In this document: positions 2,509 through 53,056 of the stretch, one piece after another
How the letters are laid out: the number at the start of each line of letters is the position of its first letter
Position numbering within the stretch: position 1 is the first letter of the stretch
From: Pyrobaculum oguniense TE7
Lineage (GTDB): Archaea > Thermoproteota > Thermoprotei > Thermoproteales > Thermoproteaceae
Length of the DNA: 64,000 nucleotides
NCBI GenBank assembly: GCA_000247545.1
Contig: CP003316.1
Location: forward strand, 281,233 to 345,232
Reading direction: 5' to 3'
Program-made: the position numbers and the translations under genes
Notes under the pieces: generated by a model
Databases searched by the model: none
What the model was told of the DNA's origin: nothing
The model's input: the letters and a program-made list of their open reading frames with translations, nothing else

Positions 2509-3264
2509 GTGCTCGGCGTGCTGGAAGCGGTAGTAGTGCACGCATCGCACTTTTTATTAGAACATTTCAGATCGGGAAAGGGGACCGAAATCGTATACCG
2601 TAAAGATGATGATGTGACAAGGGAGATTGACCTAGCAACTGAGGAGCTGGTGTACAAGATGCTGAAGAGCAACTTCGCCGAAGGCGGGGTTCTATACGCC
2701 GAGGAGGCTGGGGTTTACAGGTGGGGAGACGAGCGCTATATCTTTGTACTAGATCCACTAGATGGGTCTCTCAACTACGCAGTTGGGATACCATTTTTCT
2801 CCGTCTCGTTAGCAGCTGGGAGACACAGAGAAGGCACATTGGCCGACTTAGAATATGCCGCCGTATCTATTCCTCCTGCCGGCGTTGTATACACAGCAGG
2901 TCCCAGCGTAGGTGCTAGAAAAAACGGCCGCCCAGTGAGCAGAGATGCGAAGAGCACCATAGTATTCGCCGCACTGAGCAACGACTTCCCTGACAAGACC
3001 TGTGCCGTGATAAAGAAGTTAGGACTTAAAGGGAGGAGCCTCGGTAGCTCCGCCGCCGAGCTTGTGTATACCGCAGAAGGCCTTGCCAGAGGTTTTATAG
3101 ATCTCAGAGGCAAACTTCGCATACTCGACGTTGCGGGGGCGCTTGTGGTAGGCAGATACGTAGACGGCTTCAAATTCAGAGTGTTCGGCGACACCTCTCC
3201 TCACTCTAGGATCTCTCTAGTTGCTGGAGACGAACAGTTCGTAAATGCAACAACCGCCGATTGA
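2509..3264 (+). CDS. suhB: Inositol monophosphatase-family phosphatase (IMPase/FBPase type IV)
   Basis: A 251-aa protein with the IMPase metal-binding signatures: YAEEAG near residue 65, DPLDGS (82-87) and a C-terminal ILDVAGA (about 205). Archaeal members hydrolyse inositol-1-phosphate and often fructose-1,6-bisphosphate, so a role in inositol compounds or gluconeogenesis is possible. The sequence alone does not decide between them. The start is GTG, placed about 22 nt after the TATA/palindrome at 2476-2499, so the gene is probably leaderless and regulated. The last 20 bases overlap the SWIM protein gene, so the two are likely co-transcribed. Confidence 0.88.
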   Translation: MLGVLEAVVVHASHFLLEHFRSGKGTEIVYRKDDDVTREIDLATEELVYKMLKSNFAEGGVLYAEEAGVYRWGDERYIFVLDPLDGSLNYAVGIPFFSVSLAAGRHREGTLADLEYAAVSIPPAGVVYTAGPSVGARKNGRPVSRDAKSTIVFAALSNDFPDKTCAVIKKLGLKGRSLGSSAAELVYTAEGLARGFIDLRGKLRILDVAGALVVGRYVDGFKFRVFGDTSPHSRISLVAGDEQFVNATTAD

Positions 3265-3634
3265 GGGAAGGGTAAAGGAATTTCTTTACGCCCTATCCAG
3301 GACGTTGGGGTCACGTTACGAGAAGGTATTAGAACTATACCTATACGTGAAGCCGGATACTGTAAAAATTGTGGAACTTGTGGAGCGCGGCGGGGAGATA
3401 ACTGGTGTTAGAATCGCTGTGCGTTCCAAAAGAAGACACGACGTGTGGTACTACACAGCCGTTGGGTACTACGGTGCCAAGTGCACGTGCGAGGGAAACA
3501 CCTTGGGTGGGAAGATCTGTAAACACATCGTAATAGGGGTAATCACCTGGAATGTGGTATCGCTTATAAAAACCGGCAAAGAAATAGATCTATCCAAGCT
3601 TTCGTGGCTGAGATCTTCCGAGAAGGAGGTTTAA
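3245..3634 (+). CDS. SWIM zinc-finger protein
   Basis: 129 aa. Residues 80-94 hold a SWIM-type pattern: C80-x-C82, nine residues, then C92-x-H94 (KCTCEGN...KICKH). SWIM domains bind zinc and are found in DNA- or protein-binding factors, including recombination partners in eukaryotes. The N-terminal half is predicted alpha/beta and carries no other recognised motif. The start overlaps the end of the phosphatase gene by 20 bases. Its specific function is unknown. Confidence 0.78.
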   Translation: MQQPPIEGRVKEFLYALSRTLGSRYEKVLELYLYVKPDTVKIVELVERGGEITGVRIAVRSKRRHDVWYYTAVGYYGAKCTCEGNTLGGKICKHIVIGVITWNVVSLIKTGKEIDLSKLSWLRSSEKEV

Positions 3635-3659
3635 GATTTTAAATCTAGACTTAGTAAGT

Positions 3660-3714
3660 GTTGGTGACGACAGGAGGGTGGAGATGGATGATCGAGGATT
3701 TGAACGCTGACTCC
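3660..3714 (+). ncRNA. C/D box sRNA, predicted guide for tRNA C56 2'-O-methylation
   Basis: C box GTGACGA (3664-3670, one mismatch to RTGATGA), a weak D' near 3681-3684, C' ATGATCG (3688-3694), a 12-nt guide (3695-3706) and D box CTGA (3707-3710). The guide string ggatttgaac is the exact complement of the tRNA T-arm GTTCAAATCC and occurs identically in both tRNA-Ser genes of this window. Counting five bases upstream of the D box (g3702) gives pairing with C56. In Pyrobaculum, Cm56 is known to be made by a C/D sRNP because the protein Trm56 is absent. Box spacing and target agree, so the call is strong. The exact RNA ends are inferred. Confidence 0.83.
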
Positions 3715-3745: not shown

Positions 3746-4729
3746 GTGGACCTCCATATAAGAATCTCTCCCAGCAGAGTGCTTGAAATAGGCGGGGGGA
3801 AGCTACGTCTAGGCAGTAGTGCTGTCGTTGGGAAAGTGGAGGTGAGAAACGATGGGCTTTATCTCGGCGACAAGTTGGTAGTTTTTAGGCAGGCGTTGAA
3901 GTGCCCTGTCAGAGTTGGCGGATCCTACCTATGCCACGGCCCGGCAGAGGTGCCAAGGTTTTTCTACAGAGTTATCTACGCAGATGGGCTGAATGTATTG
4001 TTGAGATACGCAGAGCTGTATGCAACCGACAGATTAAACAGAGGGGATTGCCTCGCTGAGTACCTATACGCAGTGGTCTGGGGGGCTCCATACCTGTGGG
4101 ATCTTTACTACAGGAAAACACCAACGATTCCCCGTCGATGTGCCGATGTGGCTAGTCTGCTAGTAGCACGGGGGCTTAGAGAGACAAGACTATACACGCC
4201 GCCTCATGTAGACAACGCCACGGCGGCTCTGCTGGGGCTTTTAAAGTTCAGAGAGGCGCTGGGGCTCATAGAGTTTTCGTGGTGGGGGCTCGCCGTGGCG
4301 CTACGCTACGGGGTGTACAGCGCCTTAAGATGGCGCTTGCCGCATACACCTGACATGTGGTTTCTACTTTTTGGCATATATTCAGCCCTAGACCCCGTCG
4401 TAGTGCCCGGCGGCGTTGCTGTGGACCTCGGCATACTAAGAGCTCTGCCTTATCTGGTAGCCCGCATTCTAGGTAGGTGGCTCGTGGCGTTCAACTCAGC
4501 AGGGTTGTACATGGCGGCTGGAAATTTCAACATGATGACAGATGGGGGGAGAAAGAGAGCTAGCTACGCCTCCTGCGATGGCGTTATGTGCGACGTCGGC
4601 GGCTTGCTCTTCAATAAATGTGTAGATGTAGACTGCGGAATTTTCAGAACTTGGGATTTCGAATTTAAGGGACCGATTAAATGCCCTAGCTGGGATCTCC
4701 CCTACGTGGCGGTAGAACCTTGTAAATAA
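3746..4729 (+). CDS. Uncharacterised 327-aa protein
   Basis: Not recognised. The N-terminal 50 residues look beta-rich (repeated GGGKLRLGSS/VVGKVEVRNDG), the middle is rich in aromatic residues (WGAPYLWDLYY, FSWWGLAVALRYG) with weakly hydrophobic helices, and the C-terminus holds a cysteine cluster (residues about 274-326: SCDGVMCDVGG, NKCVDVDCG, KCPSW, EPCK) that could bind metal or form disulfides. The GTG start is about 23 nt after a TTTTTAAAA TATA-like box. The flanks are the C/D sRNA upstream and a phosphoribosyltransferase downstream. It is probably a lineage-restricted family. Confidence 0.7.
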   Translation: MDLHIRISPSRVLEIGGGKLRLGSSAVVGKVEVRNDGLYLGDKLVVFRQALKCPVRVGGSYLCHGPAEVPRFFYRVIYADGLNVLLRYAELYATDRLNRGDCLAEYLYAVVWGAPYLWDLYYRKTPTIPRRCADVASLLVARGLRETRLYTPPHVDNATAALLGLLKFREALGLIEFSWWGLAVALRYGVYSALRWRLPHTPDMWFLLFGIYSALDPVVVPGGVAVDLGILRALPYLVARILGRWLVAFNSAGLYMAAGNFNMMTDGGRKRASYASCDGVMCDVGGLLFNKCVDVDCGIFRTWDFEFKGPIKCPSWDLPYVAVEPCK

Positions 4730-16756: not shown

Positions 16757-17782
16757 GTGAGGATTACAAGGGCGTTGTGGGCTAGGCTTACAGGTAAGCC
16801 GCTGGCGTTGTGCGACATAGGGGATGTAGACGGCGTGGCATCCGCGGCGCTGTTTAAAAGGAGGTATCCACACGGCGTAGTTGTACTAATGGGACCCAAT
16901 GATGTGAGAAAATGGTGGGTGCGGGCTTTAAGATGGGATTTCGTGGCCGACCTCCCATGTCCAGGCAAGGCGAGGGTTAGGGCTGACCACCACATCACAA
17001 ACAAGCCGTGCGCCGAAGAGGAGTACTACGACCCCAACGCCCCGGCCGCGGCCGTGTTGGCGGCAAAGGCGCTGGGGCTTGAGGGAGATCCCGTGGCGAG
17101 GGAGTTGGTTGAAGCGGCTGTCCAAACTGATACCGCGAAGGTCTCCGATAGACGCGTAATGTTGTTAGACCTCGCTGTGCGCTACGCAAGCGAAGAGGAG
17201 AAGTACACCGTAGTAAACATGCTCGCAGAGAAGGGGCTTGCAGCGCTGGACGCAGAACCGCTGAAAATGCTAACAGAAAGAGGACTAGCGAGACACGGCT
17301 TGGTTTTAAAAATCGCAGACGCCTTACCTCGCGCCGATGTTTTGACCATCTACGTCCCCACTAGACTTGGGATATCTTACCGCATGCTGACAATAGAGCT
17401 TCAAAAACGGGGGACGCAGTTCGTCAACGTCCTCGTCAAGAAGGGGTGGAGGGGCTTCAGGCTGTACTGCGGCGCAAATAGAGACAGCGGCTACAATTGC
17501 GCCGAGTTGGCCGCCAAGTTTGGAGGGGGCGGTCACAAGTTCGCCGCAGGCGCTCACATTAAGGCCCCCCTCTTCAAGCCCGACGCGCCGATCTGGAACT
17601 TAGTCAATATTACAAGGCCAAAGGCGCTTTATGTGATAACAAAATGCGACAGATCAATATGCGTTCAAGAGTGGGCGCCGAGCCGGAGCCACGAGAGGAG
17701 GGAAATTTTAAGGATAGAGGATGTCAGAGCCGCTGAAGGCCGCTCACACATTCGCTTGAACCTCTACTCATCACAGACATAG
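16757..17782 (+). CDS. DHH-family phosphoesterase (RecJ-like)
   Basis: 341 aa. Motif I CDIGDVDGVASA (D20, D23, D25), motif III ADHHI (the DHH signature), and a C-terminal DHHA1 domain with FGGGGHKFAAGA that binds substrate. Family members are ssDNA exonucleases (RecJ), oligoribonucleases or Cdc45-like helicase partners. The intact acidic and DHH residues argue for an active nuclease. Start GTG. Which of the archaeal RecJ-like subfamilies it belongs to cannot be settled by eye. Confidence 0.87.
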   Translation: MRITRALWARLTGKPLALCDIGDVDGVASAALFKRRYPHGVVVLMGPNDVRKWWVRALRWDFVADLPCPGKARVRADHHITNKPCAEEEYYDPNAPAAAVLAAKALGLEGDPVARELVEAAVQTDTAKVSDRRVMLLDLAVRYASEEEKYTVVNMLAEKGLAALDAEPLKMLTERGLARHGLVLKIADALPRADVLTIYVPTRLGISYRMLTIELQKRGTQFVNVLVKKGWRGFRLYCGANRDSGYNCAELAAKFGGGGHKFAAGAHIKAPLFKPDAPIWNLVNITRPKALYVITKCDRSICVQEWAPSRSHERREILRIEDVRAAEGRSHIRLNLYSSQT

Positions 17783-33159: not shown

Positions 33160-33244
33160 CGCCGGGGGTGGGATTTGAACCCACGCCCCCGAACGGGGAC
33201 GGGCTTAGCAGGCCCGCGCCTTGGACCAACTCGGCCACCCCGGC
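33160..33244 (-). tRNA. tRNA-Ser (anticodon GCT)
   Basis: An 85-nt class II tRNA with a long variable arm (TCCCCGTTCGGGGGC). The acceptor GCCGGGG pairs with CCCCGGC, with discriminator G. The anticodon loop CTGCTAA sits in the CGGGC/GCCCG stem, and the T-arm is GTGGG-TTCAAAT-CCCAC. The anticodon GCT reads AGC/AGT. No intron, CCA not encoded. A TATA-like tttaaaa lies about 27 nt upstream on the minus strand. Confidence 0.97.
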
Positions 33245-33319: not shown

Positions 33320-33417
33320 CGCCGGGGCCGGGATTTGAACCCGGGCCCCCTGAACGGGGACGGGATTTCTCGCTTTTGTCTCCAGTCCCGCGCCTTGGGC
33401 CGCTCGGCCACCCCGGC
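33320..33417 (-). tRNA. tRNA-Ser (anticodon GGA) with 13-nt intron
   Basis: A 98-nt class II tRNA, with acceptor GCCGGGG/CCCCGGC, variable arm TCCCCGTTCAGGGGG and T-arm CCGGG-TTCAAAT-CCCGG. The anticodon loop region is 20 nt instead of 7; removing 13 nt (about 33368-33380, placement ambiguous by a few bases) gives loop CTGGAAA or CTGGAGA. Every placement from 3 to 6 bases into the loop leaves anticodon GGA (TCC/TCT codons). It is tandem with tRNA-Ser(GCT). Confidence 0.95.
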
Positions 33418-53000: not shown

Positions 53001-53056
53001 TTCTGTGATGAGAGTACGGTCGTGTGATAGATGACCGGGAGACCGATCGCTGATCC
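53001..53056 (+). ncRNA. C/D box sRNA (canonical boxes)
   Basis: C box GTGATGA (53005-53011, exact), 12-nt guide gagtacggtcgt, D' GTGA (53024-53027), 3-nt spacer, C' ATGACCG (53031-53037), 12-nt guide ggagaccgatcg, D box CTGA (53050-53053). Lengths are exactly those of archaeal double-guide sRNAs. The predicted methylation positions are the targets paired with g53019 and g53045, both cytidines in the complements ACGACCGTACTC and CGATCGGTCTCC. Targets are not assigned. A TATA-like ctataaaaaa lies about 24 nt upstream on the plus strand, in the same AT-rich block as the serA promoter. Confidence 0.8.

What the first reader, a model, noticed from the sequence alone, without database searches (positions are those of the whole stretch)
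3660..3714. C/D sRNA aimed at tRNA C56, seen from guide-target complementarity
The 10-base guide string ggatttgaac just before the D box is the complement of the T-arm of both tRNA-Ser genes in this window, and the fifth base from the D box pairs with C56. Box spacing is that of archaeal C/D RNAs. In Pyrobaculum the protein Trm56 is replaced by an sRNP, which this explains. The D' guide (about 3671-3680) has no known target here.
Basis: partly seen in the sequence, partly recalled or inferred. Interest (0 to 1): 0.75.

Follow-up and report, generated by a model that had tools for sequence, protein, structure and literature searches.

The report
Guide RNA for tRNA C56 methylation
This is a small archaeal RNA gene whose 10-base guide pairs with the same spot in every tRNA found in this Pyrobaculum genome and should direct methylation of base C56, doing the job that a protein enzyme (Trm56) does in most other archaea; the mechanism is already known from a close relative.

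Summary
A C/D box sRNA lies at about 3660-3714 (+), in the gap between two genes: box C 3664-3670, degenerate D' about 3681-3684, C' about 3688-3694, guide 3695-3706, box D 3707-3710. Ten guide bases (3696-3705) pair with T-arm positions 53-62 of all 44 tRNAs tested in the genome, not only the two tRNA-Ser; the fifth base from box D (G3702) faces C56. The genome matches P. oguniense TE7 in size. It has fibrillarin and no Trm56. The guide core GGATTTGAACG is identical in homologs from 42 of 44 genomes of the two families that lack Trm56, and no such sRNA was found where Trm56 is present: 0 of 81 genomes carry both. The D' guide has no rRNA or tRNA target and differs between genera. Guide-directed Cm56 formation is published for P. 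aerophilum (Renalier 2005), and its ortholog of this locus is present, so this is a known RNA in a known role. The modest addition is the distribution: the guide replaces Trm56 across two families. The Trm56-bearing family of the same order already has a uniform T-arm, so uniform targets probably preceded the switch.

The parts
3660..3714 (+). C/D box sRNA gene for tRNA Cm56 (ends approximate)
   Evidence: anatomy; homologs in 42 genomes
3638..3644 (+). TATA-like element TTTAAAT, likely own promoter
   Evidence: A+T peak about 28 nt upstream of box C over 42 homologs, 0.78 against about 0.45 further upstream; inferred, position varies between genera
3664..3670 (+). box C, GTGACGA
   Evidence: TGA and the final GA invariant in alignment A1
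3671..3680 (+). D' guide, orphan
   Evidence: no rRNA or tRNA complementarity above shuffles
3681..3684 (+). degenerate box D' (GAGA; CTGA at this place in the homologs of the second genus of the family)
   Evidence: alignment A1
3688..3694 (+). box C' (ATGATCG)
   Evidence: alignment A1
3695..3706 (+). D guide, 12 nt; 3696-3705 pair with tRNA 62-53, G3702 opposite C56, T3701 opposite R57
   Evidence: 3696-3706 invariant in all homologs read
3707..3710 (+). box D, CTGA
33160..33244 (-). tRNA-Ser(GCT), one of the targets
   Evidence: Rfam RF00005 62.7 bits
33320..33417 (-). second tRNA-Ser, one of the targets; extra bases in the anticodon loop suggest an intron
   Evidence: Rfam RF00005 45.4 bits

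Best explanation
The locus encodes a C/D box sRNA that assembles with L7Ae, Nop5 and fibrillarin. Its D guide (bases 2-11 from box D) pairs with positions 53-62 of the tRNA T-arm, places C56 at the fifth base from box D, and fibrillarin methylates the 2'-OH of C56 on all tRNAs. It substitutes for the missing SPOUT enzyme Trm56. The D' half is structural or an orphan guide. Shown here: sequence anatomy, pairing register, conservation, absence of trm56, presence of fibrillarin. Inferred from the P. aerophilum work and archaeal C/D RNP biochemistry: RNP assembly, catalysis, action on pre-tRNA or partly unfolded tRNA.
For: 10-bp duplex with 44/44 tRNAs, 27 with Watson-Crick pairs only and 17 with one G-U at R57, against no rRNA match above shuffles. 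N+5 places C56. The 12-nt spacer with pairing at bases 2-11 fits the reported 8-10 bp optimum (PMC7089733, citing Yang 2016). GGATTTGAACG identical in homologs from 42 genomes while flanks drift: mean column identity 82% for the core alone, 55% with flanks. No Trm56 in the own genome, controls positive. In 81 genomes of the class: guide without Trm56 42, Trm56 without guide 34, both 0, neither 5. Fibrillarin present. P. aerophilum (genome G001 by size 2,222,430) carries the ortholog (L003), and Cm56 by C/D sRNP is reported for that species.
Against: No transcript or Cm56 measurement in this species here. Box C, D' and C' deviate from consensus. The fold is no better than shuffles, which is usual for C/D sRNAs and so says little. 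The Fisher p-value for exclusivity ignores shared ancestry: it is probably one event, not 42. Nop5 and L7Ae were not searched separately.
Confidence: 0.95

Rival explanations
1. The 10-mer is a fragment of a tRNA or tRNA remnant lying antisense in the intergenic gap, not a guide.
For: GGATTTGAAC is the antisense of the T-arm of many tRNAs in the genome.
Against: Complementarity stops exactly at bases 2-11 of the spacer, with box D next to it and boxes C and C' upstream; no tRNA flanks; guide identical across 42 genomes while flanks diverge; GGATTTGAACNCTGA not expected by chance.
Confidence: 0.01
2. A C/D sRNA whose main function is served by the D' guide, the tRNA match being secondary.
For: Part of the D' region just after box C is fairly conserved within the family.
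Against: The D' guide has no rRNA or tRNA match above shuffles, its box D' is degenerate here, and it is different in other genera while the D guide is identical.
Confidence: 0.03
3. The sRNA acts mainly as a tRNA folding chaperone or stabiliser, methylation being incidental.
For: Guide binding must open the T-arm, and C/D RNAs can have chaperone roles (general knowledge).
Against: Exact N+5 placement on a position known to be Cm in archaeal tRNA, and mutual exclusion with the C56 methyltransferase.
Confidence: 0.02

Closest known systems
P. aerophilum C/D sRNA guiding tRNA Cm56 (Renalier et al. 2005, RNA 11:1051; cited in PMC7912444, PMC5372735, PMC6313347)
   Same: Same genus; the P. aerophilum-sized genome G001 holds a homolog (L003) with identical D guide, same box register and same neighbours.
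   Different: Different species; the D' guide differs in sequence. The Renalier paper itself was not available, so locus identity was not checked letter by letter.
Pyrobaculum C/D sRNA families of Lui et al. 2018 (110 families in six species) and the 83 C/D sRNAs annotated in P. oguniense TE7 (PMC3558965)
   Same: The pattern of one guide aimed at tRNA with the other orphan is described there (as summarised in PMC7994747).
   Different: The paper and its tables were not held; the family name of this RNA could not be given.
aTrm56 (COG1303, PF01994), SPOUT tRNA Cm56 methyltransferase
   Same: Same product, Cm56.
   Different: Protein-only enzyme; absent here.

Membership tests
Archaeal C/D box sRNA | Boxes C (RUGAUGA-like) and D (CUGA) | tested here: met
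   GTGACGA 3664-3670, CTGA 3707-3710; one mismatch to consensus C
Archaeal C/D box sRNA | Internal C' and D' boxes with about 9-12 nt guides | tested here: met
   degenerate D' GAGA and C' ATGATCG; spacers 10 and 12 nt; CTGA at the D' place in homologs of the second genus
Archaeal C/D box sRNA | Guide complementary to target with N+5 rule | tested here: met
   10 bp, C56 opposite the fifth base
Archaeal C/D box sRNA | Expressed as about 50-60 nt RNA bound by L7Ae, Nop5, fibrillarin | not testable with these tools
   only the fibrillarin gene was shown
Cm56-guide sRNA (P. aerophilum type) | D guide to the T-loop shared by all tRNAs | tested here: met
   44/44 tRNAs
Cm56-guide sRNA (P. aerophilum type) | Trm56 absent from the genome | tested here: met
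   PF01994 0 hits, controls positive
Cm56-guide sRNA (P. aerophilum type) | Cm56 present in tRNA and dependent on the sRNA | not testable with these tools
   reported for P. aerophilum only

The most novel reading that the evidence does not exclude
Trm56 was lost once, before Thermoproteaceae and the Vulcanisaeta-containing family split, and one guide RNA took over a modification of the whole tRNA set. This was possible because tRNA positions 53-62 were already uniform, as they are in the Trm56-bearing family of the same order. The evidence fits a clean one-for-one enzyme-to-guide replacement kept across the two families.
Probability: 0.7. Interest if true: 0.4.

Novelty: already known. Interest (0 to 1): 0.22.

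Why it matters
It is a clear example of a universal archaeal tRNA modification being made by either of two unrelated machines, a protein enzyme or an RNA-guided one. The distribution found here (42 guide-only, 34 Trm56-only, 0 both among 81 genomes) helps place the switch on the tree, and the uniform T-arm in a Trm56-bearing genome of the same order suggests why a single guide could take over.

Tried and rejected
Idea that the guide forced tRNA T-arms to become uniform: not needed, since the Trm56-bearing genome G019 of the same order is just as uniform (44/44 GTTC[AG]AATCC), although a more distant Trm56 genome, G074, is more varied. Targets for the D' guide in rRNA and tRNA, in three registers and in homologs: none above shuffles; mRNA and other RNAs were not searched. 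Rfam at gathering threshold: no C/D family hit. Single-strand fold: uninformative. Renalier 2005, Lui 2018 and Bernick 2012 full texts were not held.

Full report
Where it is. The window lies at G000:C1:281233-345232 of a genome of 2,436,033 + 16,887 bases, the size published for Pyrobaculum oguniense TE7, which has 83 annotated C/D box sRNAs (PMC3558965). The feature sits in a gap between a 129-aa protein with a weak SWIM zinc-finger match (3245-3634) and a 327-aa protein without Pfam match (3746-4729).

The observation. Box C GTGACGA 3664-3670, degenerate D' about 3681-3684, C' about 3688-3694, 12-nt guide 3695-3706 and box D CTGA 3707-3710 are in the sequence. GGATTTGAACNCTGA is found once, with none in shuffles. 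A C/D-anatomy scan finds this site and two others in the window, none in 20 randomised windows.

The target. All 44 confidently found tRNAs of the genome have GTTC[AG]AATCC at positions 53-62; guide bases 2-11 pair with all ten positions, 27 with Watson-Crick pairs only and 17 with one G-U at R57. G3702, fifth from box D, is opposite C56. A 45th marginal Rfam hit (29.5 bits) does not match and is probably not a tRNA. The 10-bp duplex with the base next to box D unpaired fits the reported optimum of 8-10 bp (PMC7089733). rRNA gives no match above shuffles.

Conservation. A nucleotide search gave homologs in all ten other genomes of the genus and in part of the second genus of the family. Aligned, the guide GGATTTGAACG is invariant while flanks drift. 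A sequence model and a pattern extended this to 42 of 44 genomes of two families, including G033, which matches Vulcanisaeta distributa in size; box C is found upstream in all 42. The two without it are 76% and 54% complete. An A+T peak at about -28 from box C suggests an own promoter, mainly in the first family. The neighbouring genes are shared within the family only.

Trm56. PF01994 finds no match in this genome, while control genomes are positive. Over 81 genomes of the class: 42 guide without Trm56, 34 Trm56 without guide, 0 both, 5 neither (the two above plus G046, G058 and G063, all below 90% complete). Pattern hits outside the two families all carry a mismatch, and none was followed up for C/D boxes. 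The count is not a set of independent events; shared ancestry most likely makes it one swap.

Why a single guide suffices. The Trm56-bearing genome of the same order (G019) has the same uniform 53-62 segment in 44/44 tRNAs; a distant Trm56 genome (G074) is more varied, but 37 of 39 tRNAs would still pair at all ten positions if G-U pairs are allowed. So uniform T-arms need no guide to explain them and probably came first. G019 is one genome with 5% contamination, and the branching of the three families was not tested here.

D' guide. No target in rRNA or tRNA in any register. D' guides differ among genera. This matches the published statement that tRNA-targeting Pyrobaculum sRNAs have one tRNA guide and one guide without target (PMC7994747).

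Comparison. In P. aerophilum Cm56 is made by a C/D sRNP instead of Trm56 (PMC7912444, PMC5372735, PMC6313347). G001, the size of P. aerophilum IM2, holds the ortholog with the same neighbours. The finding is therefore a known RNA in a known role.

Noticed in passing
window 17724-17774 (-): Second C/D sRNA candidate, overlapping the 3' end of a gene on the other strand; its D guide CTTCAGCGGC is fully complementary to 23S rRNA (GCCGCTGAAG at chromosome 1435254; about 3% of shuffled guides do as well).
   Followed up: partly
window 53005-53053 (+): Third C/D sRNA candidate, intergenic; D guide GAGACCGATC pairs with 23S rRNA GGTCGGTCTC (chromosome 1435957) with one G-U (about 1% of shuffled guides do as well).
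   Followed up: partly
L118 (G000:C1:395429-395475, - strand), L116, L117: Another conserved C/D sRNA family in Pyrobaculum with a similar but different D guide, GGATCTAAAC, and a well-kept D' guide (TCCAGGCTAG before the D' box).
   Followed up: no
window 3746-4729 (+): A 327-aa protein without Pfam match, conserved at 49-70% identity next to the sRNA in most family members examined.
   Followed up: partly
window 33320-33417 (-): tRNA-Ser missed by ARAGORN but found by Rfam; extra bases in the anticodon loop suggest an intron.
   Followed up: no
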